A stretch of 64,000 nt of DNA from a bacterium (GCA_030616165.1 JAUWXV010000001.1:23024-87023); one strand, 5' to 3'. Positions 33,473 through 50,590 are shown, counted from the stretch's first letter. Numbers and translations are program-made. Notes: generated by a model from the letters alone, not told the origin.

Positions 33473-36073
33473 ATGGACTTATTTTTACAAGATGGGGCGA
33501 GGGTAGGAATTATAGGTGGGGGTCCCTCTGGGAGTTTTACGGCTATTCATTTATTGAGCATTGCAGCTTCGCTTAACAAAAAAATTAAGGTATTCATCTT
33601 TGATAAAAAAGATTTTACATCTGGTTTAGGGTGTAATTTTTGTGCAGGCATTCTTTCTAATACACTAATTAAAGAGTTAGTCCAATATAATATTATTATC
33701 CCGCCAGAGATAATCCAAAGAGAGATTAAAGGATACTATTACGAGACGAGAGAGGGGACAGCATATTTCCCAAAGCCATCTACTTCATCAATTTTCAGTG
33801 TGTTCCGAGCAAATGGACCTTGCAGCTCAAAAGAATTATATAACGTTAGTTTTGACTATTTTCTTCTACAAGAAGCGATTAAAAGGGGAGCAAACAAAAT
33901 AGACACCAATATCAATGAAGTCATTTTTCCTTCCACTCCACAGGATCGAGTATCACTTTACTCACAGGAGCAAAATACATATTATGAATTTGAACTGGTA
34001 TTCGGTGCATTTGGAATAAATACTCCTTTTATTAAAGAATTAGAAAAATCAGGAATCGGATACAAAGCCCCAAAATACCTGCATTCTGGTCAGGCTGAGA
34101 TCCCCTACGATATATCTTTGAATAAAAAGTTTCATGACAATGTCACTGTTTTTCTTATTCCTCTCAGGAATTTATACTTCTTTTCCTTTACACCAAAAGC
34201 AGAGTATTTAACGGTTACCGCTATTGGTCCTCATGTTACAAAAGCAATGCTGGAGGAAATATTTACCATTCCGCAGGTTATGAAATATTTTCCAGACAAA
34301 TGGCAGTTCCCATTGGAGTATTGTCACTGTCATCCAAGAATATCTGTTACTATTGCGGAAAATTTCTTCTATCACCGTTTTGTGGTTGTCGGAGATGCTT
34401 GTTGGTCAAGGTATCTCAAGGATGGTATTGCATCTGCATTTTATACCTCAAAATTCGGAGTTGAATGTGCTTTCAAATATGGGATTTCACGTAATGCGTT
34501 CCGGGACAGATACTTTAGGGAAATTACTCGGATGGATAAAGATAATACTGTAGGAAAAATTTTATTTAAAATCCATAATAGATTGAAAAGGTCGCAGACT
34601 GTGCGGGGCTCTCTTTTTTCGATGACCAGAGATTACTATCATAAAACAATTCAGGAAAATGTACGATATATCCTATGGGGTTTATTTACAGGTGATTACT
34701 CTTATAAGAAGATAATGAGAAAATCTTTTAGGATTTCATTTATCGTGCCCTTTATTATAAATATTATTAATGCATACCTGAAGATTATCTTTAATAATCT
34801 GTCAAAAATTAATAAAAAAACAAAATTAAGACCAATAAAAAATCAGAGCAGTAATGTAACAGTGTCAAATTTAGTAAACGGAGATACAATTATTGTTATT
34901 GGTGGGGGACCAGCAGGCACTTCTTGTGCAATACATGCAAAAAAACTTGCTGTAAATAATAATATAGACTTGTCAGTCATATTAATCGAACCTAAAACTT
35001 TTAGCATACATTACAATCAGTGTGTTGGTGTTCTTTCCCCTAGGATAAAACAATTGATGGGAGATATAGGTATAGACTTCCCGGAACATTTAATTCAAAC
35101 AAAAATTCCAGGGTATTATTTGAATGCAAATGGTGAAGAAATATATCTTCCTTCTGATAAACATAACGATATTGGACTTGCTTTAAGGCGGAATGAGTTT
35201 GATGCTTTTATGATAGAGCAGGCTTTGCGGAACGGAGTACAAGTTGTCCGGGGAGAAGTTGTGACATTCGATTATTCAAAAAATGACAAAAAGAATAAAT
35301 TCATTGTTTATTGCAATTCCGGCACTTATAAGTGCAATTTTATTGTAGGTGCTTTTGGTGTCGGGAATGGGATTGCCCTTGATTTTTTTAAAACTTTCCG
35401 GTACCGACCTCCACATATTCTTCAATCAATTGTTTCCAAAATTCATCCTCTGGATAATTTATATATTGATGAAATTTTTGGAAATAATATCCATACTTAT
35501 CTCCCTAAATATAAAGCAATTGAATTTGGAGCAATAACTCCAAAGGGCAACCATTTAACAGTCAATATCGCCGGTGAAAAAATCAGTTTTAAAGATATGG
35601 AATATTTTCTAATGATAGATGAAGTAAAAAAATGGATTCCCCCCCATAAAGAACGAACTTACTTTAAAGGTCAATTCCCAACAAGTCCTGCACATCGATT
35701 CTATGGAGATAATTACTTGATCATAGGTGATGCGGCTGGTTTAGTTCGGCCATTTAAAGGAAAAGGTGTAAATTCAGCAATTCTCTCAGGTAAAATTGCT
35801 GCTGAAACTATCGTGAATTATGGCACAACGGCTCTTGCAATAAAACGAAACTTTGTACAACATCCACAGATACAAAAAATATTAATCGATTATAAATATG
35901 GAAAAATTATAAGAAAATTAACTATTCAGGCTTCACATCATAATCTTTTAAAATATATAATTAATTATGCAAAAAGAAATAAAACGTTCGAAACCGCTCT
36001 ATATAATGCTGTCTCTGCTAACAGACTTTATAAGGATATTATTTTATGTACTTTAAGAAACTTAGTGAGTTAA
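33473..36073 (+). CDS. Duplicated geranylgeranyl-reductase-type flavoprotein
   Basis: 866 residues made of two FAD modules of the geranylgeranyl reductase/FixC family. First module: GIIGGGPSG near residue 13, GLGCNFCAGILS, and GDACWSRYLKDGIASAF. Second (about 470-866): VIGGGPAGTSCAI, NQCVGVLSP, and GDAAGLVRPFKGKGVNSAI. Each half has its own dinucleotide and substrate motifs, so this is a head-to-tail fused duplication. Each half ends with membrane-associating hydrophobic stretches. It opens the cytochrome region, 66 bases before the NapC-like gene; it might pass electrons to quinone or reduce isoprenoid chains. No exact match known to me. Confidence 0.7.
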   Translation: MDLFLQDGARVGIIGGGPSGSFTAIHLLSIAASLNKKIKVFIFDKKDFTSGLGCNFCAGILSNTLIKELVQYNIIIPPEIIQREIKGYYYETREGTAYFPKPSTSSIFSVFRANGPCSSKELYNVSFDYFLLQEAIKRGANKIDTNINEVIFPSTPQDRVSLYSQEQNTYYEFELVFGAFGINTPFIKELEKSGIGYKAPKYLHSGQAEIPYDISLNKKFHDNVTVFLIPLRNLYFFSFTPKAEYLTVTAIGPHVTKAMLEEIFTIPQVMKYFPDKWQFPLEYCHCHPRISVTIAENFFYHRFVVVGDACWSRYLKDGIASAFYTSKFGVECAFKYGISRNAFRDRYFREITRMDKDNTVGKILFKIHNRLKRSQTVRGSLFSMTRDYYHKTIQENVRYILWGLFTGDYSYKKIMRKSFRISFIVPFIINIINAYLKIIFNNLSKINKKTKLRPIKNQSSNVTVSNLVNGDTIIVIGGGPAGTSCAIHAKKLAVNNNIDLSVILIEPKTFSIHYNQCVGVLSPRIKQLMGDIGIDFPEHLIQTKIPGYYLNANGEEIYLPSDKHNDIGLALRRNEFDAFMIEQALRNGVQVVRGEVVTFDYSKNDKKNKFIVYCNSGTYKCNFIVGAFGVGNGIALDFFKTFRYRPPHILQSIVSKIHPLDNLYIDEIFGNNIHTYLPKYKAIEFGAITPKGNHLTVNIAGEKISFKDMEYFLMIDEVKKWIPPHKERTYFKGQFPTSPAHRFYGDNYLIIGDAAGLVRPFKGKGVNSAILSGKIAAETIVNYGTTALAIKRNFVQHPQIQKILIDYKYGKIIRKLTIQASHHNLLKYIINYAKRNKTFETALYNAVSANRLYKDIILCTLRNLVS

Positions 36074-36139
36074 ATTTATCTACTAATAAAAAATCAGCAT
36101 ATGAATATAAAATTAAACTAATTTAAGGAAAATTTTATT

Positions 36140-37648
36140 ATGACAAGGAAATTGCCACCCTTATTGTTAAATCCTATTAGTTTAATAGGGATTCTTATTG
36201 CTTTGACCAGTTTCATTGCCATTATAATTCTCTTTTTTGCTCATATTTTTTTAGCACCTGATAATCCATATATTGGAATAGTCACTTACCTGATTTTCCC
36301 AATCTTTTTAATAATAGGATTACTTATAATTCCCTTCGGTATGTTTATTGAGAGACGGCAACAATTAAAAAGAAAAGGAATAAAAGAACGGCGTCTTCCA
36401 ATTATCGATTTTAACCAGCAAGATCAGAGAAACGCTTTTATACTCTTTTTGATAGTTTTAATTATTTTTATGATATTGAGTGCTGTTGGAAGTTACAGAG
36501 CTTATGTTTTCACCGATTCAGTAGTTTTTTGTGGGAAAATCTGCCATTCTATAATGCATCCTGAATATATTACTTACATGGAGAGCCCTCATGCCCGGGT
36601 GTCATGTGCTGAGTGTCATGTTGGAACAGGAGCCAACTGGTATGCCAAATCAAAGCTTTCCGGTGCATATCAGGTTTATGCTACAATAGCACAAAAATAT
36701 CCTAAGCCTATTCCAACACCTATCAAAAATTTACGACCAGCTCAGGAAACCTGTGAGCAGTGTCACTGGCCAGGGCAATTTTTTGGTGGGAAACAGAAAA
36801 TATTTACTTATTATTTAAGTGATGAAGAAAACACCAAGTATGAAATTAATATGTTAATGAAGGTTGGTGGCGGAAATCCAAAATCCAGTAGAACTTCGGG
36901 TATTCACTGGCATATGAATATTCAGAATAAGATAGAATTTATATCAACGGATAATAAAAACAAAATTATTCCTTGGATTCGTTCTACTAACCTATTAACT
37001 GGGGAAGTAAAAACATTTACTGATGAAGAGAACCCACTATCAGAAGAATTATTGTCAAAGAGTAAGCCTCATGTAATGGATTGTATGGATTGTCATAACC
37101 GACCAACTCATATCTTTAAGTCTCCAAGTCTTTCCGTTAATGAAAAAATTCTATTAAATCGAATTAATAAATCATTACCTGAGGTTAAATATATATCTGT
37201 TGAACTTCTTTCAGATGATTATGAAACAACTGATATTGCAGTGAACACAATTGCCGAAGAGATTTGGAAATTTTACAGAGAAAATTATCCCAAGGTTTTT
37301 GAAAAGGAAAGGGATAGTATAAAACAATCAATCAGAGAATTGCAGGAGATTTATCAGAGGAATATTTTTCCAGAAATGGGTGTAAAGTGGTCAGTTTATC
37401 CTGACCACATTGGACATCTTGATTTCCCGGGTTGTTATAGATGTCATGATAATAAACATATTACGGAATACGGAGACCGACTGGCGAATGATTGTAATCA
37501 ATGTCACACAATTTTGTCGCAGGAGTTTGGAGGCGAAAAAGAAGAGACTCTCGACCCAAAAGGAATAAAATTTAAACATCCAGTTGATATTGGAGATGAC
37601 TGGAAATTAGTAGGATGCCATGAATGTCATACAGGATTAAATCCTTAA
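36140..37648 (+). CDS. NapC/NirT-like membrane heptahaem cytochrome c
   Basis: 502 residues. Three N-terminal membrane helices (about 13-35, 46-66, 96-117) precede the periplasmic part. Seven haem motifs: CGKICH (CxxxCH), CAECH, CEQCH, CMDCH, CYRCH, CNQCH and CHECH. SPHARVSCAECHVG, LSGAYQVYATIAQKYPKPIP and LRPAQETCEQCHWP are typical of the NapC/NirT-related multihaem quinol dehydrogenases of metal- and sulfur-respiring bacteria. It would exchange electrons between the quinone pool and periplasmic cytochromes. It converges on the NrfD operon, whose end is 81 bases away. Confidence 0.85.
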   Translation: MTRKLPPLLLNPISLIGILIALTSFIAIIILFFAHIFLAPDNPYIGIVTYLIFPIFLIIGLLIIPFGMFIERRQQLKRKGIKERRLPIIDFNQQDQRNAFILFLIVLIIFMILSAVGSYRAYVFTDSVVFCGKICHSIMHPEYITYMESPHARVSCAECHVGTGANWYAKSKLSGAYQVYATIAQKYPKPIPTPIKNLRPAQETCEQCHWPGQFFGGKQKIFTYYLSDEENTKYEINMLMKVGGGNPKSSRTSGIHWHMNIQNKIEFISTDNKNKIIPWIRSTNLLTGEVKTFTDEENPLSEELLSKSKPHVMDCMDCHNRPTHIFKSPSLSVNEKILLNRINKSLPEVKYISVELLSDDYETTDIAVNTIAEEIWKFYRENYPKVFEKERDSIKQSIRELQEIYQRNIFPEMGVKWSVYPDHIGHLDFPGCYRCHDNKHITEYGDRLANDCNQCHTILSQEFGGEKEETLDPKGIKFKHPVDIGDDWKLVGCHECHTGLNP

Positions 37649-37729
37649 AGCAAGTTTTAATAAAAATATAATTTACAATTTTTTATAAATATTATATATC
37701 GGACTCGATGTTTATCTGTCAATTAGATT

Positions 37730-38956
37730 TTATTGAGAAGATTCCTTTGCAATAGAAGACAGAGGTGTTGTTGCAGCTTCAGGCCATGGCGGAAGGATTT
37801 TTATGATTATATACAATACGAATAGTGGAAGAAATAATAATGCAATGGATATCAAAAGACCTTCGATTCCTAAAAGTTCCATCTTATAATGGGTTAGTCC
37901 TCGAAGGCTTTTCGAGAATAATTGACCACCTATCACGACGTTCCACCTTGTGCTGAATATCCCAATTTGAACTAAAATTGCCGCTCCAAAATAGATTAAC
38001 CTACGTAACTCATCGGGGAGCCGGAATAGTTTTACAGATGCTAATGAACCCAAAGGCAGTAAAGTTCCCAGGAGTATTTGAATTACAACAAGACTTATAA
38101 ACAATTTTTGTGATATCAACTGGCCTAAAATGTGGATGGATTCAACAGACTCATACATCCGGTGGATAAAATCCAGGGTCTCGAGAGAAATATCAAGTAT
38201 CATCGCATACAGCAGAAATGACGCCAGTTTGTCCATGCATGCCATATCGATTGGTTTCCAACGAAAAAGGGTTGTTACACCATATATCAGGATCATCAAC
38301 GCGATTCCTGAAACAATAGCCGAAAACAGAAATACAATAGGCATCAACACGCTGCTCCACCAGGGATTTGCCTTCACGGAGCCAAAAATAAAACCTACAT
38401 ATCCATGCAGTAAAAATGCTGACGGGATACCGATTATGGTAATAAACTTTCCTGCTTTACGGTCAAATCGTATTGCCTTTTCGGACAGGTCCAGTGAGCC
38501 TAATGAAAGAAGATAGTACATATACTTTCGCCATCCTTTTTTACTCCGAGCCCAATAAACGATGTCCTTCCTATAATCAAACCATATTTCGAGCATTAAC
38601 ACTATCATCAAGTACCAGGCGTAAACAAATCCGAACATTGCCATTGCTGACTTTAATTGAGGAGTGAGAAAAATTTCAATTGACCGTTCGGGGTAACTAA
38701 GGTGTGCAAGGAGCGGAAGTGGGGCTATGATCAGAAATGCCAGCGCAGTCAACATAGACAGGCGGTATGTAGGTTGAACTTCTTTTACTTCAAAAACACG
38801 CTCCAGTGAAGCAAGGATGAATGCCCCTGCGACAAGCCCTGTGATATATGGATATACGACTATCAAAATCCCCCAATGGAGTTCCACCTCGTTTGGATAA
38901 ATATACCCAACCACTTGTTTTAAGATTGGCTGTAGTTGTTCGATTAAATTTTCCAT
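37730..38956 (-). CDS. NrfD/PsrC-type quinone-interacting membrane subunit
   Basis: 408 residues, about ten membrane helices. WGILIVVYPYITGLVAGAFILASLERVF is the family opening helix with the conserved GxxxG region; LAHLSYPERSIEIFL and NPWWSSVLMPIVFLFSAIVSGIAL are also typical. NrfD proteins oxidise or reduce quinones and pass electrons to a membrane-attached ferredoxin, here encoded two bases upstream, and from it to the octahaem cytochrome. Last gene of a three-gene unit on the minus strand. Confidence 0.87.
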   Translation of the reverse strand: MENLIEQLQPILKQVVGYIYPNEVELHWGILIVVYPYITGLVAGAFILASLERVFEVKEVQPTYRLSMLTALAFLIIAPLPLLAHLSYPERSIEIFLTPQLKSAMAMFGFVYAWYLMIVLMLEIWFDYRKDIVYWARSKKGWRKYMYYLLSLGSLDLSEKAIRFDRKAGKFITIIGIPSAFLLHGYVGFIFGSVKANPWWSSVLMPIVFLFSAIVSGIALMILIYGVTTLFRWKPIDMACMDKLASFLLYAMILDISLETLDFIHRMYESVESIHILGQLISQKLFISLVVIQILLGTLLPLGSLASVKLFRLPDELRRLIYFGAAILVQIGIFSTRWNVVIGGQLFSKSLRGLTHYKMELLGIEGLLISIALLFLPLFVLYIIIKILPPWPEAATTPLSSIAKESSQ

Positions 38957-38958
38957 AA

Positions 38959-39717
38959 TTATCTCACTTCCCCATCCAAGTTAGCGTAATAAATTTTTGG
39001 TTCCGTATTAAGATGAGGTTTCAGAACCTGGACTTTGTTGAAACGCATGAATCGGGCTAATAGGCTGCTGCGCAAACCGATCTCGCCAAATATCCTCGCT
39101 TCGGTTGGACAAACTTCAACACAAGCGGGCTTTAGACCCCGGGATAAACGATGATAGCAGAATGTACATTTTTCCGCCGTACTGGTCACAGGGTTAAGAA
39201 ACCTTGCTCCGTACGGACATGCCTGAATACAATAACGACACCCGAGGCAGTAATCTTTATCGATCAATATCACTCCATCCTTAGTGATAAATGTAGCACC
39301 TACCGGACATACCTGCACGCATGGTGGATTAGCACACTGGTTGCACAATTTTGGCACAAAGAAGGTCCGCATGATCTCATTTTCGGCAACCATTTCAGGA
39401 AAACCCTCACTTCCCCCATTTGGGCTATCAACCTGTGCTGTCCCATCAATAAGAATTATGTACCGCTCAACCCAAGTCCGGAAAAAGAATGGTTCACGAG
39501 GTACATCATTTTCCCGCTTACATGCATCTACACACTGTCCACAACCGATGCACTTGTCGACCTGAATTCCCATCCCGTATTGATGTATTGGTTCATTATC
39601 ATTTGATGAATCAGAATCTTCTGAAGCAGGAGACCCGAATAATAACAGTACGGTTCCTACAAGTGTGCTTTCCCGTAGAAACTCTCGGCGATTCATCAAT
39701 TCACGTTTCTTTTTCAT
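38959..39717 (-). CDS. Tat-exported four-cluster ferredoxin (NrfC/HybA/DsrO type)
   Basis: 252 residues from the ATG at 39717, which overlaps the cytochrome stop (TGATG); a longer frame to 39759 would run into that gene. MNRREFLRES is a twin-arginine signal. Ferredoxin motifs: CIGCGQCVDACKRE, CNQCANPPCVQVCPVGA, CLGCRYCIQACPYGA, and CTFCYHRLSRGLKPACVEVCPTEA; these supply four [4Fe-4S] clusters. It would sit on the periplasmic face, bridging the NrfD-type protein and the octahaem cytochrome. Confidence 0.9.
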   Translation of the reverse strand: MKKKRELMNRREFLRESTLVGTVLLLFGSPASEDSDSSNDNEPIHQYGMGIQVDKCIGCGQCVDACKRENDVPREPFFFRTWVERYIILIDGTAQVDSPNGGSEGFPEMVAENEIMRTFFVPKLCNQCANPPCVQVCPVGATFITKDGVILIDKDYCLGCRYCIQACPYGARFLNPVTSTAEKCTFCYHRLSRGLKPACVEVCPTEARIFGEIGLRSSLLARFMRFNKVQVLKPHLNTEPKIYYANLDGEVR

Positions 39718-40502
39718 CAGCGCACCTCCGGATAATGTGGATAATGACATTGCCAGCACGCATGATCAGGCTCATGTGACTGAAGGTCCACCCGCGGTAT
39801 TTCCCCGGCACTTTCTGCATTTTCTCCATGACAACCACCGCAAAATGTTCTCTTCCGTGGTTTACTGGGACGAAATGACCGGGGATCTTTTTTATGTGCT
39901 TCAGGAGCAGAGTGACACTGGGTACACTCCAGGGCAGCATGGTGTGAGACAGCTTTTGTCCGCGCAATTTCCCCGTGACATGCTCCACATTCCTCAGGGG
40001 GTTGCGGAGGTTTGGGATCATGGGGTTCGTGACAAGACATACAGGGTTCTAAAGGATTATGTGTGACTATATTAATTTGGGGGAATCCCGTTGGCTTGGA
40101 CGCATTATATATATGACAGAGGGGACATAAACCCCGCTGACGTGGAGCCGAAGGAGTATTTTCGCTGGGATCCTCAACATGGTTTGCACCTGGCCCATGG
40201 CATACTTCGCAGGCAACATTCTGATGATAAGATGTTTGTTTTAACGCTACATATTCATCGTGACACTCTGAACACGCTTCCTGCCCAGCATAATGGATTG
40301 GAAGAGCTAATATAGAATCTATGGCAGCTGCTCGGTAGTGTCCCTCTTTTACAAAGGTGGGCGGCATTAAGTAATTCCGGACGGTAATGAGCATTATCAC
40401 TAAAATAATAAAAATAATAAGTAAGCGTTTTATTTGGTCTGGAAAAGGAATTGATTTCCAGCCCGGCATTCTTAATTCTGGACGAAATCGAAAATTTAAC
40501 AT
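39717..40502 (-). CDS. Membrane-anchored octahaem cytochrome c
   Basis: 261 residues from the ATG at 40502; a longer frame begins at 40583, and neither start has a clear RBS. One N-terminal helix (LLIIFIILVIMLITVRNYL) anchors a periplasmic domain with eight CxxCH motifs: CSECH, CEVCH, CPLCH, CMSCH, CGACH, CTQCH, CGGCH, CWQCH. The GxCPLCHIYNASKPTGFPQI stretch and dispersed His ligands resemble the cytochromes of NrfD/ferredoxin quinone oxidoreductases. First gene of the three-gene unit; divergent from the Rieske gene. Confidence 0.85.
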   Translation of the reverse strand: MLNFRFRPELRMPGWKSIPFPDQIKRLLIIFIILVIMLITVRNYLMPPTFVKEGHYRAAAIDSILALPIHYAGQEACSECHDEYVALKQTSYHQNVACEVCHGPGANHVEDPSENTPSAPRQRGLCPLCHIYNASKPTGFPQINIVTHNPLEPCMSCHEPHDPKPPQPPEECGACHGEIARTKAVSHHAALECTQCHSAPEAHKKDPRSFRPSKPRKRTFCGGCHGENAESAGEIPRVDLQSHEPDHACWQCHYPHYPEVR

Positions 40503-40929
40503 GTTTTTTGTCTGAATCAGCTTTTTAATATCAATTAAGTAATGAAAAACGAGATAATGAAAAATTTCATGGAATTTTAACAAATTCAGTAAAATGAGAA
40601 AATCTATACGAATTTGGAACTTATATCACTTGACTATTGTTAATCATTTGAAATTGTAATTTTCAATAAAAGATTTATATTTTGAAAAAAATATGGAGAA
40701 ATTTTGAAAATTGTTAAAAAATTTGACATACAACCCCAAATGAAAATATGTATTATCAATCCCTTTTTATAATTGTATAAATTATATAAATAATATAAAA
40801 TATTTTAAATTAAATATCAATAATTTTTTTATTAATATTTTTTATAATTTATATATTTTATTTATCTTGACTTTTTTAAAAAAAAATTATATTATTAAGA
40901 AAAATTTCATACTTAATAACCAAACGATA
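40503..40929. other. Divergent intergenic region between two redox operons
   Basis: Very AT-rich, no gene seen. It carries a promoter candidate for the Rieske operon (40723-40752) and presumably one for the octahaem operon that I could not place. Confidence 0.5.
40723..40752 (+). promoter_or_regulatory. Promoter candidate of the Rieske/cytochrome b operon
   Basis: TTGACA (40723-40728), 18 bases, TATGTA (40747-40752); a weaker -10 and longer spacing than in other promoters here. It leaves a leader of about 170 bases. Confidence 0.4.
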
Positions 40930-41370
40930 ATGGAAGAGAGAAACACATCAAGAAAGAGTTTTATTAATTACCTGTTAGGCGGTGGTTTTACTCTTGTCGC
41001 AGCTTCTTTCTTATATCCAATAGTGAGGTTCGTGCTCCCTCCAAAATCGACCGAAGCAGAACCTATGGCAGTATCTGCTGGCAAGGTTGGCGAGATGCAT
41101 TTAAATTCTGGGAAGATATTTAAATTTGGAAGAAAACCTGGTCTGCTTATTTATACAGAACAGGGTGAATATCAGGCATTTATGGCAACCTGTACACATC
41201 TTGACTGCATTGTGCAATTCCGAAATGATTCTGAAAGCATCTGGTGTGCTTGCCATAATGGATATTATGACCTTAATGGAAATAATATATCTGGTCCGCC
41301 CCCAAGACCCTTAGAAAGACTGAATGTTTTTATAAAAGATGATGATATAATGGTTTCAAAAATTACTTAA
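40930..41370 (+). CDS. Rieske [2Fe-2S] protein
   Basis: 146 residues from the ATG at 40930; an upstream frame from a TTG (40867) adds only an AT-rich artefactual stretch. A single N-terminal helix ([21 protein letters not shown]) acts as anchor or Tat-like signal (SRKSF rather than RR). CTHLDC and CACHNGYY give the two Cys-His pairs. [10 protein letters not shown] after them is the Pro-rich loop. It moves electrons from quinol at cytochrome b to a c-type cytochrome; cytochrome b is encoded one base downstream. Confidence 0.92.
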
Positions 41371-41371: not shown

Positions 41372-42445
41372 ATGAAGACCTACACAACCAATCTCATTAA
41401 TTGGCTTGATAAAAGATACAACATAAAAGAAATAATAGGATTTATTACAGAAAAGAAGGTCCCTATTTACAAACACACTATCTGGTATTATATGGGAGGG
41501 ATAACCCTTCTTTTTTTTATCATTCAGGTTTTAACTGGCATACTTCTTCTTCTCTATTACCGACCTACTCCTGAGGAGGCATTTGAAAGTGTTCAATTTA
41601 TTATGACACAGGTTCACTACGGATGGCTTATCCGCTCTATTCACAGTTGGTCAGCAAATCTTATGATTCTTTTTGCATTTATACATATGTTCAGTGTATT
41701 ACTCCTGAAATCTTACAGACCTCCACGTGAACTAACATGGGTAACCGGTGTGCTGTTAATGTATATATCTCTTGCTTTTGGCTTCACGGGTTATCTCCTT
41801 CCGTGGAATGAATTGTCCTTTTTTGCCACAAAAGTTGGTACTGACATAGCGGGAGTTATTCCTTTTATTGGAAAATTCATTATTAGATTCCTGAGAGGTG
41901 GAGAAGACGTTACAGGAGCGACCTTGACGAGACTCTTTGGATTTCATGTTGCTGTCCTTCCAGGAGTAATCATTGTGATTTTGGTTATACATTTATTGAT
42001 GGTTCAACGACAGGGAATGAGCAAACCGATAGGCTTAAAAGAAGTGAAGAAGGGGATGCTATTTTTCCCGGACTTTTTTTTAAGAGACCTTTTAGGATGG
42101 CTATTTGCAGTTGGGATTCTTGCAGCTCTGGCTGCTATCTTTCCCTGGGAACTGGGGCAGAAGGCAGACCCATTTTCATCTGCTCCAGAAGGCATCGCGC
42201 CTGAATGGTATTTTTTATTTATGTTTCAAACATTAAAATTCTTCCCCGCAAGAATATTAATTTTAGACGGCGAAGTGATTGCAGTCTTTATTTTCGCAGC
42301 ACTCGGAATATTCTGGATTCTAATCCCATTTCTTGATACTAAAGCCAGAAGGGAACAAAAAAGCCCGATATTTACAACTATAGGTATTTTTGCAATTCTA
42401 TACGTGGGGATAATTACTATACTTTCTTATTTTGTATTTAAGTAA
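41372..42445 (+). CDS. Cytochrome b of a bc/b6f-like complex (fused b6 and subunit IV)
   Basis: 357 residues, about seven or eight helices. The b-haem His pairs are in [22 protein letters not shown] and the region around [41 protein letters not shown] is the Qo-side PW(N) motif; [23 protein letters not shown] near the C-terminus contains the PEWY Qo motif. The shorter length and lack of a full last third resemble b6-subunit IV fusions. It oxidises menaquinol and passes electrons to Rieske and the 9-haem cytochrome encoded next (TAATG overlap). Confidence 0.92.
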
Positions 42446-43752
42446 TGTATTCGCATAATCTTATGAAAAATATTATTAGACATTTCAACATTATTTACAT
42501 ACTATTTTTATTTATTTTTCTCTTCCCCGCTATATATTTATTTCCACAAGAAAGGCACAATAATTGTATCGAATGCCACAGTAAATTCGAAGAAGAAGAG
42601 ACATCGCCAACCATTGAATTTAAAAATGATATCCATAATACAAGTGGTATGTTATGTTCTGACTGTCATGGTGGAGACCCGGAAATAAATGCAGGTGGAA
42701 ATCAAGAACTTGCTATGAATCCTAAAAAAGGATATAAACCACCTCCGGGTCATAACGAAATCCCCGAATTCTGTGCAAGATGCCATTCTGATTTTGAATA
42801 TATGAAAAAATTTAATCCCAATATAAGAGTAGACCAATATGAAAATTATTTAACAAGTCAACACGGGAAATTACTGGCAAAGGGAGATGATAAAGTAGCT
42901 AATTGTGTTAGTTGTCATAAAACCCACGGGATTCGAAAAAAAACAAACCCTGCCTCAGCCGTTTTTGCAAACAAAATTCCGGAAACTTGTAGTAAATGCC
43001 ACTCAGACCCGGAATATATGAAGGAATATAAAATCCTGACTAACCAGTTGGAAATGTATAAAAAAAGTGTTCACGGGGAATTTTTATTGGAAAAAGGGGA
43101 CTTAAATGCTCCTGCTTGCAATGACTGCCACGGAAATCACGGTGCCGCTCCCCCGGGTGTCGAATCTGTACACAATGTCTGCGGAGTATGTCACTCAGGA
43201 AATAATCAGTTGTTCTTAAAAAGTTCTCATAAAAAATACTTTGATGAATTTGGCTTTCCAGAATGTGCATCATGTCATGAACATCATTTAATAAAAAAAC
43301 TTACAGAAGAATCTCTCGGGGTTGGAGACCAATCTGTTTGCGGAATTTGTCATACACAAGAAGATGAAGGAGGTATAATCGCTGTTGAAATGAAAAATAT
43401 TATCGAAAATTTTTCTGCACTGCGGGATACTTGCCAAATATTGTCCGAAGAGGTAGAAAGGAAGGGTATGCCCGTTAATGAAATAAAATACCAGATGAAC
43501 AATGTTGACTCTGAACTGTTAAAAGCAAGAAATATAGTGCATAGTTTTTCTCTGGAAAATATAAAACAAATAACTGAAGAAGGAACAAAACTTGCCATCT
43601 CTGTAAAAAAAATGGCAAATGATGAATTAAAAGAATATCAAATTAGGAGAATAGGACTGGCTGTCTCGCTTTTCTTTATTTTTTTAGCGGGAACCGCCCT
43701 CTATTTGAAAATCAAGAAGATAGACAAAAAAAATATAATAAATTCTTTTTAA
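42445..43752 (+). CDS. Nine-haem cytochrome c subunit of the bc-like complex
   Basis: 435 residues. Signal/anchor helix (about 14-34), nine CxxCH motifs (CIECH, CSDCH, CARCH, CVSCH, CSKCH, CNDCH, CGVCH, CASCH, CGICH), a helical stretch of about 100 residues without haem, and a C-terminal membrane helix (IGLAVSLFFIFLAGTALYL). The haem-free coiled region after motif nine is like the cytochrome c3-type subunits of quinol-oxidising multihaem complexes. It replaces cytochrome c1. The start shares a base with the cytochrome b stop, so the three genes form one unit. Confidence 0.85.
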   Translation: MYSHNLMKNIIRHFNIIYILFLFIFLFPAIYLFPQERHNNCIECHSKFEEEETSPTIEFKNDIHNTSGMLCSDCHGGDPEINAGGNQELAMNPKKGYKPPPGHNEIPEFCARCHSDFEYMKKFNPNIRVDQYENYLTSQHGKLLAKGDDKVANCVSCHKTHGIRKKTNPASAVFANKIPETCSKCHSDPEYMKEYKILTNQLEMYKKSVHGEFLLEKGDLNAPACNDCHGNHGAAPPGVESVHNVCGVCHSGNNQLFLKSSHKKYFDEFGFPECASCHEHHLIKKLTEESLGVGDQSVCGICHTQEDEGGIIAVEMKNIIENFSALRDTCQILSEEVERKGMPVNEIKYQMNNVDSELLKARNIVHSFSLENIKQITEEGTKLAISVKKMANDELKEYQIRRIGLAVSLFFIFLAGTALYLKIKKIDKKNIINSF

Positions 43753-44117
43753 CTATAAATTGATGGTATAACAAATTTAAAAATAAAATCTTAAAATTTT
43801 GTGCACTTAATCAGAGATGCAATATATAAGTTTCAGAAAAAATATTTGACAATTAAAAATATTTTGTTATATTATCATAATATATAATTAATATAATTAT
43901 TATAATCAATATATTTTATATCTTTTCAATACCTAAATCGAATAATTTTAATTATTTATATAAATATTTCTTTCTGGTATAAATATGATAAAAATGCTGA
44001 AATAATATGCGTAAATACCTAATTCTCTGTTCTTCTATTACCTATTTTTTTAATCCAAATTCTCATATAAAATAATTTTTATAAATATGAGAATAGAATT
44101 TTTATTAGGAGGATTCA
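43753..44117. other. Leader region of the porin-cytochrome genes
   Basis: 365 AT-rich bases with the promoter at 43846 and a 240-base untranslated leader that ends in AGGAGG. No gene seen in it. Confidence 0.55.
43846..43873 (+). promoter_or_regulatory. Promoter of the porin-cytochrome genes
   Basis: TTGACA (43846-43851), 16 bases, TATATT (43868-43873). Confidence 0.65.
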
Positions 44118-46895
44118 ATGAAATCAAGACTTTTAGCTTTAATTGCGATAAGTATTCTCAGTATGTTTATAATCAAAATATTAATTGCCCAAAGTTCTGA
44201 ACCAACTGCAAAGATTAAACTCGATTTTGTTACCTCGCATAAGATTGACGTTGATACGGCTTTGACATCCACAGGGAAAGCCTCAGGGCTGAATAATGTA
44301 GGTGTCGGTGAAACTGTTTATCCGGTGGGTGTTGCTACCGGTACGAATATTACTTATCAGTGGTCTATTGATGGACCGACAGGTTCTTCAGCAACTTTAA
44401 GCAGTACTATCGAAGACAGTATACACTTTCAGCCGGACGTAGAAGGGATTTATATATTAACTCTCACGGTTACTGCTGATGAAGGAACAGCAACTTCCTC
44501 AATCAAGGTTCAGGCGGCGAAATATATAGGTGTTGGAAAAATTGATGGTCTTAAGTCTGAATTTCCTCAGTGTGGCATAGGATGCCATTATACTATTTAT
44601 GACAAATGGATTCAAACAGGACATGCTACAGCATTCAGCAGGAAACTGGATGAAGAAGGCGGACATTTCGGTTCAAATTGTATAGATTGTCATTCAATAG
44701 GTTATAATACACTTACTAATGCGGTTAATAATGGATTTGATGATATAGCAAGTAGCCTTGGATGGACCTTCCCTGATACCTTAAAATCGGGAAATTGGCA
44801 GAATATGATAAACAATTATCCCTCACTTGCCCAGAGAGCAAATATACAATGTGAAAATTGCCATGGTCCAGGCAGCGGTCATAATTTTAAAGATGGTCCA
44901 ATTGAAGAATCCGGTATCGGTAAGACCTATGAGCCTGGTATTTGTGCATATTGTCATGATGCTCCTACTCACCATGTGTATTTTCCTGAGTGGGAAAAAA
45001 GCGGTCATAATACAGTAGATGATCACATGAATAGTTCATCATGTGCCAAATGCCATACAGGGAAGGGTTTTGTAATCCAAAATATAAGAGGTGAGGCATC
45101 TGAAGCACCTTATGTTGAGGGTGCGGCTGTTACTTGTGCAGCCTGTCATGACCCTCACGATGCTACAAATGAACATCAATTACGGAAAGTTTCGAATGTT
45201 ACACTTAATGATGAAACAACAGTGGTTTCTGAAGGAGGATTGGGAAAACTTTGTATGAACTGCCATCTTTCAAGAAGAGATGCAGAAGAATATGTAACTA
45301 AATATCATAGTCATTTTGGCCCTCATCACTCGAATCAAACAGATATGTTAGTTGGTGCAAATGCTATAGAGTTCGGGCTCTCCATGCCGGAGACTGGACA
45401 TATCAAAGCAGTTGAAGATGCTTGTGTCACATGTCACATGGCAGAACAGCCAAAAGAAAATAAAGATGAAGGTATATCCAAGGTTGGTTCGCATACTTTC
45501 AGTATGGTTAGCACCGTTGGAACTGATACAACTTACAATGTTGAGATATGTCAGGGCTGTCACGGCAGTGAAATTGAAAAATTTGAAGATGTAAAAGCAT
45601 CTTCGGATTATGATGGTGATGGCACGATAGAAGGAGCTGTAGCGGAAGTTGAAGGTTTAATGCATCAATTGGGAATGCTTCTTCCACCATTAGATGAGCC
45701 TGGAGTTTCTGTAGCTAAAGATTATACTCCTGTACAGCTTAAGGCTGCGTATAACTATGAATTCGTTGATGATGATGCAAGCCATGGAGTTCACAATACA
45801 TCTTATACAGTTGCAATTTTGAAGGCTGCAATTCAGGCAATTTCTACTGGAGATATTGGAGCGGGCAGTATTATAGCAATTGATGATGTTCCTAACGACC
45901 AGGGGAAACAGGTACGAATACGTTGGAATCGTTTTTCGGGAGATGGAAAATTAGACAATCCTATTGGGAAGTACGGAATATGGCGGCGTATCGATGATAT
46001 GAGTTTGGCAAAGAATGCTAATACTGTTTCATCTTATGAGGATATGTTCAATAGTCTGGAAAAAATTTCTGAAGGAAGTCAATTCGTGGTCACTGAAAGC
46101 GGAGAACTCTGGGATTTTGAAAAAGAAGTCTCTGCAGTCGGGGAAGACAAGTACAGCACAATTACTGCTACGCTTTTTGATTCTACAATTACAGATGGCA
46201 TGCACTGGTCTGTTTTTTACATTTCTGGTCATTCACTCGAAGGTGGATTAGTTGTGAAATCTGCTGTGGACAGTGGTTATTCAGTTGATAATTTGGCACC
46301 TGCAGTACCTGTTCTAAAGATAGCATCAAAAACAGCCGGTATGGTTACTGTAGAATGGGATGCTCCTGTGGATGAGGACTTCAAATACTTCAATGTATAT
46401 CGGGGAACAGAGCAGGGGTTTGACCCTGCGACTGTTGAGCCAATTTTGAGAAGGGTAGATGCTGAATTCACCGAAAATCTTTCTGCTGTTGGTGAAAAAT
46501 ATTATTACAGGATTAGTGCTGTGGATTTCAGTGGGAACGAATCAGGATTTTCACTGGAAATTTCTGAGGATAACGTAATAACCAGTCTTGAACTTGGTAA
46601 TATCAGTAGTATCCCAGGAAAGTTCGCTCTGGAACAGAATTATCCGAACCCATTTAACCCGATAACACATATACGTTATCAACTGCCAAAAAGTACTAAT
46701 GTCACTCTACATATATATGGTATCACCGGTAATCTGATTCGTACTCTTGTCAGCGAATACCAGCACCAAGGTTTTATAGAGGTTGAATGGAATGGAAAGG
46801 ATGATTTTGGTAGCTCGGTAGCATCTGGAATTTATATTTATAGAATTACAGCAGGGAAGTTCTCGGATAGCAGAAAAATGATTCTCATAAAATAA
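44118..46895 (+). CDS. Surface multihaem cytochrome c with PKD-like and fibronectin-like domains and a type IX sorting tail
   Basis: 925 residues; RBS AGGAGG. Signal peptide about 1-25; a PKD/Ig-like strand domain (about 60-130, ITYQWSIDGPTGSSATL); nine haem motifs between about 155 and 485 (CGIGCH, then CIDCH, CENCH, CAYCH, CAKCH, CAACH, CMNCH, CVTCH, CQGCH); a long all-beta region; a fibronectin type III domain (about 725-820, VPVLKIASKTAGMVTVEWDAP); and a C-terminal sorting domain of about 90 residues (FALEQNYPNPFNPITHIRYQ ... GIYIYRITAG). The tail is the type A signal of type IX secretion, so the protein should reach the cell surface. Likely the outer end of an electron conduit. Confidence 0.87.
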   Translation: MKSRLLALIAISILSMFIIKILIAQSSEPTAKIKLDFVTSHKIDVDTALTSTGKASGLNNVGVGETVYPVGVATGTNITYQWSIDGPTGSSATLSSTIEDSIHFQPDVEGIYILTLTVTADEGTATSSIKVQAAKYIGVGKIDGLKSEFPQCGIGCHYTIYDKWIQTGHATAFSRKLDEEGGHFGSNCIDCHSIGYNTLTNAVNNGFDDIASSLGWTFPDTLKSGNWQNMINNYPSLAQRANIQCENCHGPGSGHNFKDGPIEESGIGKTYEPGICAYCHDAPTHHVYFPEWEKSGHNTVDDHMNSSSCAKCHTGKGFVIQNIRGEASEAPYVEGAAVTCAACHDPHDATNEHQLRKVSNVTLNDETTVVSEGGLGKLCMNCHLSRRDAEEYVTKYHSHFGPHHSNQTDMLVGANAIEFGLSMPETGHIKAVEDACVTCHMAEQPKENKDEGISKVGSHTFSMVSTVGTDTTYNVEICQGCHGSEIEKFEDVKASSDYDGDGTIEGAVAEVEGLMHQLGMLLPPLDEPGVSVAKDYTPVQLKAAYNYEFVDDDASHGVHNTSYTVAILKAAIQAISTGDIGAGSIIAIDDVPNDQGKQVRIRWNRFSGDGKLDNPIGKYGIWRRIDDMSLAKNANTVSSYEDMFNSLEKISEGSQFVVTESGELWDFEKEVSAVGEDKYSTITATLFDSTITDGMHWSVFYISGHSLEGGLVVKSAVDSGYSVDNLAPAVPVLKIASKTAGMVTVEWDAPVDEDFKYFNVYRGTEQGFDPATVEPILRRVDAEFTENLSAVGEKYYYRISAVDFSGNESGFSLEISEDNVITSLELGNISSIPGKFALEQNYPNPFNPITHIRYQLPKSTNVTLHIYGITGNLIRTLVSEYQHQGFIEVEWNGKDDFGSSVASGIYIYRITAGKFSDSRKMILIK

Positions 46896-46944
46896 AAAGA
46901 TCTTGAAAATTTTGCCATAACATAATGAATAACAACAGTTTGTT

Positions 46945-46980
46945 AAAAAGAAAACAGTTCTTTGTGAGCTGTTTTCTTTT
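46945..46980 (+). terminator. Terminator after the surface cytochrome gene
   Basis: Stem AAGAAAACAG / CTGTTTTCTT with an 11-base loop and a short T-run, 50 bases after the stop. Read-through to the next gene, which starts 24 bases later, is likely. Confidence 0.6.
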
Positions 46981-47003
46981 ATTAAGAAAGTAAAAATATC
47001 ATA

Positions 47004-48107
47004 ATGAGTACGAATAAATTACGAAAGTTATTACTGTGTATCTCATTAATAGGATTAGGAGCATTCTCATGCAGTGAGTTAGATATTAATAATCCTTTAA
47101 CATATATAAATGATAAAATATCTTATGAAAAAGATATAAAACCTATTTTTGCGAATAGATGTATAGATTGTCATAGTGGAAGTTCGCCTGCAGGAAATTA
47201 TAACCTTTCTTCCATATTAACGATTATGGGGAACGGTACAGACTTGAAACCGAATGTAATTATCGGAAGTCCATATAGTCTTCTTCTGATGAAGATTATT
47301 ATAGGGGACGATAACCACCGTGAGTGGATAGGCTCTGAAGAAAACACTCAAAAATTGTATAAATGGATAGTTGAGGATAGTTTGAGCATCAGTGAGCCGA
47401 TTGTGCATCTTGCTGGACCTATGGATGTGGATTCACCAAATTTTCATGGACAGGATATTAGAAATAAAGCGTGGTCTATGGAATCATGTAAGCTCTGTCA
47501 TGGAACTGACTATAATGGGGGTTCCTCAGAGGGTTCCTGTAACAAATGTCACGATCCAAACCCGGAGGAATGCACTACTTGTCATGGTTTTGGTATGCTT
47601 GATAATCATTTGGGAGCACCACCTCCTGATCTGAGTAACAACATCGAGACTTCTTTTAGAGGAGTTGGCGCTCACACAATACACATGACAGAGGGCGATA
47701 ATTCCGATGGTATTGAATGTGAATCCTGTCACATTGTTCCCCAAAATTTGTACGATGATGGTCATATTTTTTCTGAAGAGCCTGCAGAAGTTGTTTTTAG
47801 TTATCTTGCACATAATTTAGGAGCAGAACCAATCTGGGACACTGAAACCCTGACCTGTAAAGATGTTTACTGTCATGGAAATTTCCCTTCAGGAAACAAG
47901 GAGAATGCTCCAAAATGGACTGGCTTTGATCCGAATCCACCGAGTTGTTCTCCTGCCTGCCACCAGTTTCCTCCTGTTGGTAAAACACGAACCGGTTTTA
48001 AACACTCTCCCAGTGTTTCTCAATGCTGGTACTGCCATTCCAATCTTGATAATAAATATAATTTTATTGATAAGTCAACTCATATTAATGGAATTATTGA
48101 AAGATGA
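47004..48107 (+). CDS. Outer-membrane multihaem lipoprotein of the C-x4-CH type
   Basis: 367 residues with a lipobox (IGLGAFSC, Cys about 23). Haem motifs: CIDCH, CKLCH, CNKCH, CTTCH, CESCH, then CKDVYCH (Cx4CH) and CSPACH (Cx3CH), then CWYCH. The Cx4CH followed 25-30 residues later by CxxxCH, in a WTGFDPNPPSCSPACHQFPP context, is the pattern of the Geobacter CxxxxCH/CxxCH domain family (TIGR01904-type), found in outer-membrane electron-transfer proteins. The N-terminal SYEKDIKPIFANRCIDCHSG is a cytochrome c planctomycete-type domain. Stop overlaps the barrel gene (ATGA). Confidence 0.82.
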   Translation: MSTNKLRKLLLCISLIGLGAFSCSELDINNPLTYINDKISYEKDIKPIFANRCIDCHSGSSPAGNYNLSSILTIMGNGTDLKPNVIIGSPYSLLLMKIIIGDDNHREWIGSEENTQKLYKWIVEDSLSISEPIVHLAGPMDVDSPNFHGQDIRNKAWSMESCKLCHGTDYNGGSSEGSCNKCHDPNPEECTTCHGFGMLDNHLGAPPPDLSNNIETSFRGVGAHTIHMTEGDNSDGIECESCHIVPQNLYDDGHIFSEEPAEVVFSYLAHNLGAEPIWDTETLTCKDVYCHGNFPSGNKENAPKWTGFDPNPPSCSPACHQFPPVGKTRTGFKHSPSVSQCWYCHSNLDNKYNFIDKSTHINGIIER

Positions 48108-49399
48108 ATAAACTCATAAGTGTTAAAATTATTTTGTTATATTTAATCTTTACAATTCTGCCATTATATGAGAATTATGGTCAGGTTATTACGGGAAGAG
48201 TGTCATCGTATATGTACAGCTGGCAAATTCAGGACCAACAGTCAGGTTCCTCTGAACATATTCGTTTGTATCAAACCCTTGTTATGAATGTTAAAAATGT
48301 TGGGAGCCCAAAAGTCTCTTTGCATACCAATATACGCTATACGAAGGACTTCATTAATGATAGCGATTACAATCACAATTGGAAATTTCAATATTTTTAT
48401 GGACAGGTAAAAAAGGTTCTTCAAGTAGCAGATATTAAATTTGGTCGGCATTATGTATATTCTGGCGTTGGCAATGGTTCAATTGACGGGATTTCTACAA
48501 AGATAAAAGTAAAAGAAATTGCTGATTTTGAATTTTATGGCGGAATGCCTGTTTCATGGTATCATGAAATAAAGGTCCAGAAATGGAACGAGAGTAGAAT
48601 GTATGGATTACGAATACAGCCGAGAATGTTCTTGAATACATTGGTGAGTATAAGTTATGTTCAAAAAAAGATGAATCCCCTCCCTTATAAGATTCCTGGG
48701 AAGTTTACTTTCAAAAAATGGGATATAACTTCTGATGCAGTGGAATTTGTTGGATTGGATTTCTATACTCAATGGTCTGAAAAAACGAGCGCGTATGGCC
48801 GCCTCGATTGGGATATGACGTATGATGACATTTATCGGATAAATTTTTATTATAACAGGTCGCTCTTCAATAAATTTTCTCTCAGTGCTGAATACTACTA
48901 TAGAAAACCGCGGATTTATAATAATTCGATTTTTAGTGTGTTTGCTCAGCACGATAACCGAGAATACTGGTTTCGAATTTATTATAATATTAAAGAAAAT
49001 CTGTCTGTATCCGGCGGAACATCAATTGTTATTTATTCGGGAGATAAGGGATATCGACATAATGTAAGTATATATTCAAATCGTTTTAGTATTGGCTATA
49101 ATCATACAAGCGGTTACAGCGGTAGATTGGATGGATTAACAGGAAGCGTTAATTATCCGATAAGAAATAATATATGGCTGAAGGGCGGTACAAATATTTC
49201 ACGATACAAGCTGTTTGAACATCTTGAAGACTTTGAAAATGTGTTAAGTACGTTTGCAGGAATTTCAATAATGCCCAAAAAAACTTGTACGCTGGATATC
49301 GAAGGGCAGGGATTACATAATTATAATCACAGCAGTGATTTTCGGATACTTTTGAGAGCTAACTGCTGGTTTTCATTTGGTAAAATACGGAAAAATTAA
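48104..49399 (+). CDS. Outer-membrane beta-barrel, likely porin of a porin-cytochrome conduit
   Basis: 431 residues; signal peptide (ILLYLIFTILPLYENYGQ). After it come about 18-20 amphipathic strands with alternating aromatic residues and short turns (for example YSGVGNGSIDGISTKIKV, FSLSAEYYYRKPRIY, NIWLKGGTNISRYKLF), ending in FRILLRANCWFSFGKIRKN. No plug or enzymatic domain. The size is like Geobacter OmbB (shorter than MtrB). It lies between a cytochrome lipoprotein and a 14-haem periplasmic cytochrome, the arrangement of porin-cytochrome complexes, so it probably sheathes haems across the outer membrane. Barrel call by pattern only. Confidence 0.72.
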   Translation: MNKLISVKIILLYLIFTILPLYENYGQVITGRVSSYMYSWQIQDQQSGSSEHIRLYQTLVMNVKNVGSPKVSLHTNIRYTKDFINDSDYNHNWKFQYFYGQVKKVLQVADIKFGRHYVYSGVGNGSIDGISTKIKVKEIADFEFYGGMPVSWYHEIKVQKWNESRMYGLRIQPRMFLNTLVSISYVQKKMNPLPYKIPGKFTFKKWDITSDAVEFVGLDFYTQWSEKTSAYGRLDWDMTYDDIYRINFYYNRSLFNKFSLSAEYYYRKPRIYNNSIFSVFAQHDNREYWFRIYYNIKENLSVSGGTSIVIYSGDKGYRHNVSIYSNRFSIGYNHTSGYSGRLDGLTGSVNYPIRNNIWLKGGTNISRYKLFEHLEDFENVLSTFAGISIMPKKTCTLDIEGQGLHNYNHSSDFRILLRANCWFSFGKIRKN

Positions 49400-49411
49400 G
49401 GTGTTTATTAC

Positions 49412-50590
49412 ATGACACATGTGAAAATAATCAAAACTGTTAAATGGGTTTTTTTCTTTTTTATTGTTTATTATGGAAGTTATTACTCTATAATTGCTGC
49501 TCAAAAAAATTCTATTATTTTTTCTCATAAACTGCATATCGAAGATATAGGAGCAGAATGTGTTGATTGTCATTCAACCATCCCGGAAAGTCAGGAAATG
49601 GATGATAAAAATCTACCAAAACATGAAGAATGCTTTATGTGTCATGATGATGATATAGCATCTCAAAAATGCGGTACTTGTCATTCTGATCCGGATAATC
49701 CCGAACCGTTGGAAAATCCAATTCGTGAATTTTATTTCAACCATGTATTTCATATCAAGGAACAAAATATGGAATGCGATAATTGTCATCAGGGATTGGA
49801 AAAAGTTGACTATGCACAGAAAGAAAATCTCCCGAGTATGGAACAATGTTATCAATGTCATGATGGTGTGACAGCATCGCAAAGATGTGAAGATTGTCAT
49901 ACACCTACAGCTCGCCTGATTCCAATGACTCACACCCCTGACTGGAAATTAATTCATAAGCATTCATCAAATTTAATAGAATCAGAATGCATGACATGCC
50001 ACCAAGAGAATTATTGTGAAGATTGTCATACGGGAACACGATTGCTGGAAATTGGAAATGAAGATAAAGACTATGTTAATCCCAACATTCCTTCGAGTGA
50101 AGGGAAAAAGAATATGGTTCTTCAAAGGGTGCATGAACTTAATTATCGTTACACACATGGAATTGATGCTAACGATAAAAAACTGAATTGTTCTTTTTGC
50201 CATCAAGAAACACAATTTTGCGTTAGATGTCATCAAGAAGAAGAAAAGATAAATATTTTAAAACCTTCCTGGCATTCAGGACCGGAATGGGGTGCTATTG
50301 TTGAAGCAGTGGGTTCAGGGGGAGGAAGGCATGCTCGGCTTGCCAGGAGAGACATTGAAAGATGTGCAGCCTGCCATGATTCACAGGGAGAAGACCCTGT
50401 TTGTCTTATGTGTCATAGAGATTTTCTTCCAGGAAGAGGAAATGATTTAAGAACACATTTTATAGGAATGTTTTCTGGGGCAGGAGAGGGAGCATGGCAT
50501 GTTGATGAAGGTTCTATATGTTTTAATTGCCATGTAAATTCTATGACACCCGGTGTGGGATTTTGCGGATACTGTCATAGCATCAAATGA
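49412..50590 (+). CDS. Periplasmic 14-haem cytochrome c
   Basis: 392 residues with an N-terminal signal (VKWVFFFFIVYYGSYYSIIAA). Fourteen CxxCH motifs: CVDCH, CFMCH, CGTCH, CDNCH, CYQCH, CEDCH, CMTCH, CEDCH, CSFCH, CVRCH, CAACH, CLMCH, CFNCH, CGYCH, one per 28 residues. The repeats IIFSHKLHIEDIGAECVDCH and FYFNHVFHIKEQNMECDNCH resemble MtrA/OmaB-like decahaem proteins, which have ten and eight haems. By position after the barrel gene it should be the periplasmic end of the conduit. It starts 13 bases after the barrel stop. Confidence 0.85.
   Translation: MTHVKIIKTVKWVFFFFIVYYGSYYSIIAAQKNSIIFSHKLHIEDIGAECVDCHSTIPESQEMDDKNLPKHEECFMCHDDDIASQKCGTCHSDPDNPEPLENPIREFYFNHVFHIKEQNMECDNCHQGLEKVDYAQKENLPSMEQCYQCHDGVTASQRCEDCHTPTARLIPMTHTPDWKLIHKHSSNLIESECMTCHQENYCEDCHTGTRLLEIGNEDKDYVNPNIPSSEGKKNMVLQRVHELNYRYTHGIDANDKKLNCSFCHQETQFCVRCHQEEEKINILKPSWHSGPEWGAIVEAVGSGGGRHARLARRDIERCAACHDSQGEDPVCLMCHRDFLPGRGNDLRTHFIGMFSGAGEGAWHVDEGSICFNCHVNSMTPGVGFCGYCHSIK

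What the first reader, a model, noticed from the sequence alone, without database searches (positions are those of the whole stretch)
33473..50590. A near-complete route for electrons from the quinone pool to the outside of the cell
Directly seen: 17 kb with six multihaem cytochromes holding 7, 8, 9, 9, 8 and 14 haem motifs (55 in all), a Rieske/cytochrome b pair, an NrfD/ferredoxin module and a barrel protein. Known: porin-cytochrome complexes (Mtr, Omb-Oma-Omc) move electrons across outer membranes, fed by inner-membrane quinol oxidoreductases. Inference: this lineage can respire, or take electrons from, solids such as iron or manganese minerals or partner cells. All layers lie side by side in one locus, with no close match I know of in an FCB-type bacterium.
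Basis: partly seen in the sequence, partly recalled or inferred. Interest (0 to 1): 0.85.

Follow-up and report, generated by a model that had tools for sequence, protein, structure and literature searches.

The report
Electron-export gene cluster, KSB1 bacterium
This stretch encodes a probable electrical path from a bacterium's inner membrane to its surface, of a type already known from related Ignavibacteria; what may be new is that one surface cytochrome carries a type IX secretion tag and nearly always occurs in genomes that have this same outer-membrane pore.

Summary
Six multihaem cytochromes (51 CX2CH plus 4 CX3-4CH motifs, 55 in all), a Rieske/cytochrome b pair, an NrfD/FeS pair and a predicted 22-strand, plugless barrel lie within 14.5 kb. 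Most likely this is an extracellular electron-transfer pathway: an ImcH-type quinol dehydrogenase, an NrfD/FeS/octahaem module and a bc complex whose third subunit is a nonahaem cytochrome feed a porin-cytochrome (Pcc) conduit. The claim of no close match in FCB bacteria is wrong. The barrel is in 97 of 149 Ignavibacteria genomes, as the barrel/14-haem/lipoprotein trio where read. The same 14-haem layout was described in Ignavibacterium album in 2014. The whole inner-membrane block recurs in the DeMMO2_4 genome. The window comes from a KSB1-type bacterium, and its conduit groups with other KSB1 members. Less expected is the 925-residue cytochrome: it carries a type IX secretion signal. In 99 Ignavibacteria genomes its relatives co-occur with the barrel (57 both, 8 barrel only, 1 cytochrome only, 33 neither), and it lies beside the conduit in several genomes. 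I found no report of T9SS-exported multihaem cytochromes. Direction of flow, substrate and complex formation are inferred, not shown.

The parts
36140..37648 (+). ImcH-type inner-membrane heptahaem quinol dehydrogenase (NapC/NirT-like; 3 transmembrane helices; one CX3CH and six CX2CH motifs; 502 aa)
   Evidence: PF03264 over cut-off; motifs and helices; matches the ImcH definition in PMC6295460; 43-47% identical homologues next to bc genes or near the conduit
37730..38956 (-). NrfD-type quinone-interacting membrane subunit
   Evidence: PF03916, E 9e-34; 67% identical in L062
38959..39717 (-). Tat-exported ferredoxin-like subunit with 16 conserved Cys (room for four 4Fe-4S clusters), NrfC/TtrB/DsrO-like
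   Evidence: PF13247 and others, NCBIfam, RREF Tat motif and Cys set conserved with L062
39717..40583 (-). Membrane-anchored periplasmic octahaem cytochrome of the NrfD module
   Evidence: 8 CX2CH, N-terminal helix, orthologues in L060 and L062
40867..41370 (+). Rieske 2Fe-2S protein of a bc-type complex
   Evidence: PF00355; ligands CTHLDC and CACH conserved in 9 sequences
41372..42445 (+). Cytochrome b (b6 plus subunit IV fused) of a bc-type complex
   Evidence: PF00033, PF00032; His 91/105 and 192/207 and the PEWY motif conserved; 54-86% identical homologues
42445..43752 (+). Nonahaem cytochrome with C-terminal membrane helix, in place of cytochrome c1/f
   Evidence: 9 CX2CH conserved in 10 sequences; follows Rieske-cytochrome b in the eight relatives read at 36-78% identity
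44118..46895 (+). Extracellular nonahaem cytochrome with PKD domain and T9SS type A sorting signal
   Evidence: TIGR04183 38.2 bits against a cut-off of 23, PF18962 over cut-off, PF22352 weaker; homologues with T9SS tail next to or near the conduit in L036, L042, L043; SprA present in the genome
47004..48107 (+). Outer-surface lipoprotein cytochrome, 6 CX2CH plus 2 atypical motifs (CxxxxCH/CxxCH family)
   Evidence: TIGR01904 over cut-off; Cys23-Ser24 conserved; homologue beside the barrel or 14-haem gene in most related loci
48104..49399 (+). Porin-like outer-membrane barrel, 22 predicted strands, no plug
   Evidence: AlphaFold2 model, pLDDT 80; Z about 20 over 346 residues to TonB-receptor barrels
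49412..50590 (+). Periplasmic 14-haem cytochrome expected to thread the barrel
   Evidence: 14 CX2CH; haem Cys/His make up most of the invariant positions in 12 sequences; barrel gene directly upstream in the KSB1, Ignavibacteria, DeMMO2_4 and Zixibacteria homologues

Best explanation
The locus encodes an anaerobic extracellular electron-transfer pathway. Three inner-membrane modules take electrons from quinol: the ImcH-type heptahaem protein, the NrfD/FeS/octahaem module and the Rieske/cytochrome b/nonahaem complex. They reduce periplasmic haem chains. [quoted passage not shown] Shown here: gene content, motifs, barrel fold prediction, conserved neighbourhoods, presence of the T9SS translocon, and no detected haem-copper oxidase or NrfA in the assembly. 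Inferred: complex formation, outward direction of flow, surface location, and a mineral, humic substance or partner cell as acceptor.
For: Barrel and 14- or 12-haem gene adjacent in KSB1, Ignavibacteria, DeMMO2_4 and Zixibacteria loci, mostly with the lipoprotein. Barrel in 97 of 149 Ignavibacteria genomes. 22-strand barrel. ImcH signature and literature. The order ImcH, octahaem, FeS, NrfD, Rieske, cytochrome b, nonahaem repeated in L062. T9SS-tagged cytochrome, lipoprotein, barrel, 14-haem in the same order in KSB1 L036. Own genome: SprA found, no COX1, no NrfA; molybdoenzyme hits read as formate dehydrogenase, NADH dehydrogenase-like and one cut 524-aa protein. Published Pcc roles.
Against: No complex could be predicted. 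The 14-haem model is poor (pLDDT 49). Not every published Pcc bearer reduces metal oxides; I. album is named as one that does not. The own genome is about 90% complete, so absences are weak. In DeMMO2_4 the inner-membrane block and the conduit lie on different contigs, so one-locus packing is not general.
Confidence: 0.8

Rival explanations
1. The same proteins work inward: electrons are taken from Fe(II), other minerals or partner cells into the quinone pool.
For: Porin-cytochrome conduits are used for Fe(II) oxidation in other bacteria (general knowledge; PMC4245776, mentions Mtr-type examples). The chain itself is reversible in principle.
Against: A bc complex and an ImcH-type protein are normally quinol oxidisers. 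Carbon fixation was not searched for. No COX1 was found, so a high-potential sink for inward electrons is not evident.
Confidence: 0.1
2. The inner-membrane modules and the conduit are separate systems that only sit side by side; the NrfD/FeS/octahaem and bc modules serve periplasmic reductases elsewhere in the genome.
For: In DeMMO2_4 the inner-membrane block is on another contig (G008:C18) than the conduit (G008:C30). NrfD/FeS pairs often serve other reductases (family matches).
Against: No NrfA or COX1 found; no obvious terminal molybdoreductase among the hits read. ImcH lies near the conduit in G121 (L039), and an FeS/multihaem pair near it in L012 and L015.
Confidence: 0.15
3. The T9SS-tagged 925-aa cytochrome is an extracellular enzyme that reduces a soluble compound, with the conduit feeding it, rather than a contact to solids.
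For: Partial matches to cytochrome c554 (PF13435) and to a UshA-like family with a cytochrome segment (NF041198). Pcc systems have been proposed for substrates other than metals (PMC4245776).
Against: These matches are partial or below family cut-offs; no active-site assignment was made.
Confidence: 0.2
4. Artefact of binning or assembly.
For: The source is a 343-contig draft genome.
Against: The family-level relative G002 carries the same genes at 69-86% identity. GC of the cluster is like its flanks (0.369 against 0.367 and 0.405). The 14-haem tree groups the window with KSB1.
Confidence: 0.02

Closest known systems
Pcc cluster of Ignavibacterium album (IALB_1840-1837; porin IALB_1839, 14-haem IALB_1838 of 400 aa, outer cytochrome IALB_1837 with atypical motifs; PMC4245776)
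   Same: Porin followed by a periplasmic cytochrome of about 400 aa with 14 haems, plus an outer cytochrome with atypical haem motifs. Ignavibacteria loci with this order are 33-39% identical to the window in the 14-haem protein.
   Different: In the window the lipoprotein gene precedes the barrel; a T9SS-tagged cytochrome and inner-membrane modules are alongside. The I. album sequences themselves could not be aligned here.
ImcH of Geobacter sulfurreducens (PMC6295460)
   Same: Three N-terminal helices, one CX3CH next to them, six CX2CH, about 500 aa.
   Different: Sits beside bc and NrfD modules and a Pcc conduit, in a KSB1-type bacterium.
Geobacter ext conduits (extABCD, extEFG; PMC6148476)
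   Same: 18-21 strand porin with a periplasmic dodecahaem cytochrome and lipoprotein cytochromes; relatives of the window family in other FCB loci have 12 haems.
   Different: No sequence comparison with ExtA/ExtG could be made; haem number differs (14 against 12).
MtrCAB of Shewanella
   Same: Same general architecture of barrel, inner haem wire and surface cytochrome.
   Different: The barrel does not match the MtrB family (PF11854) and the genome has no match to it; 22 strands and 14 haems against 28 strands and 10 haems given for Mtr in PMC4245776.
Cytochrome b6f/bc complexes
   Same: Rieske ligands, four haem b His ligands and the PEWY motif.
   Different: Cytochrome f/c1 replaced by a nonahaem cytochrome with a C-terminal anchor.

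Membership tests
Porin-cytochrome (Pcc) conduit | Outer-membrane porin-like protein of 18-22 strands | tested here: met
   22 strands predicted; large-barrel structural matches
Porin-cytochrome (Pcc) conduit | Porin gene next to a periplasmic multihaem cytochrome gene with 5-14 haems | tested here: met
   Adjacent 14-haem gene, arrangement conserved
Porin-cytochrome (Pcc) conduit | Outer-membrane cytochrome in the same cluster (in most cases) | tested here: met
   Lipoprotein with 6+2 motifs, TIGR01904 over cut-off; surface location inferred
Porin-cytochrome (Pcc) conduit | Physical complex that moves electrons across the outer membrane | not testable with these tools
   Needs purification and a proteoliposome assay
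Ignavibacterium album-type Pcc | Homology to IALB_1839/1838 | tested here: inconclusive
   Same size, haem number and porin/14-haem order; 33-39% identity to Ignavibacteria loci, but I. album is not named among the held genomes
Mtr (MtrB/PioB) | MtrB_PioB family barrel (PF11854) | tested here: not met
   No match of the barrel nor anywhere in the genome
ImcH | 3 N-terminal helices, atypical CX3CH, six CX2CH, 495-519 aa | tested here: met
   against PMC6295460
ImcH | Sequence identity to Geobacter ImcH | not tested
   Geobacter sequence not at hand
Cytochrome bc/b6f complex | Rieske cluster ligands, haem b ligands, PEWY motif | tested here: met
Cytochrome bc/b6f complex | Monohaem cytochrome c1 or f subunit | tested here: not met
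   A nonahaem cytochrome holds its place
T9SS cargo | C-terminal type A sorting domain over cut-off, and T9SS translocon in the genome | tested here: met
   TIGR04183 38.2 bits, cut-off 23; SprA_N over cut-off in G000

The most novel reading that the evidence does not exclude
In KSB1, Ignavibacteria and perhaps other FCB bacteria, the outward end of a Pcc conduit includes a nonahaem cytochrome exported with its haems by the type IX secretion system. That is a way of placing redox protein outside the cell that I did not find described for Mtr, Omc or Pcc systems. It works together with a locus that packs three different quinol-to-cytochrome modules.
Probability: 0.5. Interest if true: 0.7.

Novelty: new variant of a known kind. 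Interest (0 to 1): 0.5.

Why it matters
It extends a likely electron-export route to KSB1-type bacteria, which have few genomes in the set searched here. It also ties a type IX secreted cytochrome to the conduit by genome co-occurrence and neighbourhood. If true, it gives FCB bacteria their own way to wire the cell surface, and a gene marker (T9SS-tagged nonahaem cytochrome plus 22-strand barrel) for finding such bacteria in metagenomes.

Tried and rejected
The barrel profile against PDB sequences gave nothing significant (TbuX, E 0.07). The structure of the 14-haem protein was too poor to use. The Mtr family was rejected by PF11854. A nitrite-reductase (Nrf) reading of the NrfD and NapC/NirT genes was set aside because no NrfA was found and the ImcH signature fits better. 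An aerobic bc-to-oxidase role was made unlikely by the absence of COX1; cytochrome bd was not searched. A plasmid search with the barrel found nothing. No 16S gene is in the draft genome, so kinship rests on named relatives. MtrB structures did not appear among the rows shown by the fold comparison, which decides nothing. Searches for T9SS together with multihaem cytochromes and electron transfer gave no paper, and the broader searches showed none in the rows listed; the library lacks most subscription journals.

Full report
What is there. Shuffled proteins give almost none. Around them lie a Rieske protein, a cytochrome b, an NrfD protein, a Tat-exported ferredoxin with 16 Cys and a 431-residue protein without any family match. 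The 866-residue protein at the start of the reported range is a tandem FAD oxidoreductase, and no homologue of it turned up in the related loci examined; I leave it out.

The barrel. The 431-residue protein is modelled as a run of 22 strands (mean pLDDT 80). Its best structural matches are large outer-membrane barrels: ushers by Foldseek and the barrels of TonB-dependent receptors, which have 22 strands, by VIA-align (Z about 20, rmsd about 4.5 Å over 346 residues). The window protein starts its first strand right after the signal peptide, so it has no plug domain. That is a wide pore, which is what a haem wire needs. The second, a predicted complex, could not be run.

The conduit trio. In the family-level relative G002 and in KSB1, Ignavibacteriota, Zixibacteria and DeMMO Bacteroidetes genomes, the barrel gene is next to a 14-haem (or 12- or 13-haem) gene, and in most of them a lipoprotein cytochrome gene of the same family is adjacent. 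In more distant loci (L014-L017, L019) a 12- or 13-haem relative also follows an open frame of barrel size, but those frames did not match the window barrel. A profile of the barrel finds it in 97 of 149 Ignavibacteria genomes. The haem Cys and His positions are conserved across 12 sequences. In a tree of the 14-haem protein the window groups with other KSB1 sequences (97/88, 100/98 and 99/98 support) apart from Ignavibacteria, so recent transfer from Ignavibacteria is not indicated.

The inner-membrane part. The 502-residue heptahaem protein has three helices, one CX3CH and six CX2CH, which is the published description of ImcH homologues (PMC6295460); that paper already lists ImcH homologues in Ignavibacteriae, Calditrichaeota and Bacteroidetes. 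Cytochrome b has His 91/105 and 192/207 and the PEWY motif, and the Rieske protein has both ligand boxes, conserved in nine sequences. The cytochrome c1/f place is taken by a nonahaem protein with a C-terminal helix. In DeMMO2_4 (L062) the order is a 19-haem protein, an unassigned frame, ImcH, octahaem, FeS, NrfD, Rieske, cytochrome b, nonahaem: the window's whole inner-membrane set, in one direction. In Melioribacteraceae (L067) and Calditrichota (L063) ImcH sits by the bc genes. In the genome G121, whose conduit lies on a 3.74-Mb contig, ImcH lies about 6 kb from the conduit (L039).

The type IX secreted cytochrome. The 925-residue protein carries a PKD-like domain, nine haem motifs and a T9SS type A sorting signal over its cut-off. 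The genome has the SprA translocon. In the KSB1 genome G011 (L036) the order T9SS cytochrome, lipoprotein, barrel, 14-haem matches the window's outer-membrane part, followed there by a relative of the nonahaem protein; in two Ignavibacteria genomes (L042, L043) the T9SS cytochrome is next to or close by the conduit. In 99 Ignavibacteria genomes, 57 have both it and the barrel, 8 the barrel only, 1 the cytochrome only and 33 neither (Fisher p 1.5e-17; not corrected for shared ancestry). In ten genomes the two lie within 31 kb on one contig, and all 30 of the homologues read carry a T9SS tail. I found no paper that reports T9SS-exported multihaem cytochromes, within a library that lacks many journals.

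How it most likely works. Quinol is oxidised by up to three modules with different chemistry; electrons pass over periplasmic haems to the 14-haem wire in the barrel and out to the lipoprotein and T9SS cytochromes. No haem-copper oxidase or NrfA was found in the draft genome, and the molybdoenzyme hits read as a formate dehydrogenase with an in-frame TGA, NADH dehydrogenase-like subunits and one cut protein, which fits an anaerobe with an extracellular sink. Direction and acceptor are inferred.

Against what is known. This is a Pcc system. Shi et al. 2014 (PMC4245776) describe in Ignavibacterium album a porin (IALB_1839) with a 400-residue 14-haem cytochrome (IALB_1838) and an outer cytochrome with atypical motifs (IALB_1837), placed outside their five groups. 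Later papers add Melioribacter, other Ignavibacteria and Caldithrix (PMC7399161; PMC6137239). What remains new, as far as I could look, is the type IX secreted partner, its tight co-occurrence with the barrel, and the packing of three quinol modules with the conduit in one KSB1-type locus.

Noticed in passing
33473-36073: 866-aa tandem duplication of an FAD-dependent oxidoreductase (two Rossmann units, possibly geranylgeranyl-reductase-like by reading), 66 bases upstream of the ImcH-type gene on the same strand; no homologue in the related loci examined.
   Followed up: partly
29536-30813: Cysteine-synthase-like PLP enzyme with a TusA domain fused at its C-terminus, in a run of sulfur assimilation genes.
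   Followed up: no
50717-52378: Fusion of a ThiN domain with an AIR-synthase-like domain directly downstream of the conduit.
   Followed up: no
L036 (G011:C99) and L012, L013: Second conduit variant in KSB1 genomes: nonahaem cytochrome, a 335-361 aa protein (rhodanese-like by reading of L004), barrel, 12-haem cytochrome, lipoprotein cytochrome; recalls the rhodanese lipoprotein ExtH of Geobacter extHIJKL.
   Followed up: partly
L012 and L015: An FeS subunit and a 5-haem cytochrome (with a weak NrfD match in L012) lie near the barrel/12-haem conduit in KSB1 and Calditrichota, on the opposite strand.
   Followed up: partly
L072 (G000:C53): Formate-dehydrogenase-like gene with one in-frame TGA, probably selenocysteine.
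   Followed up: no
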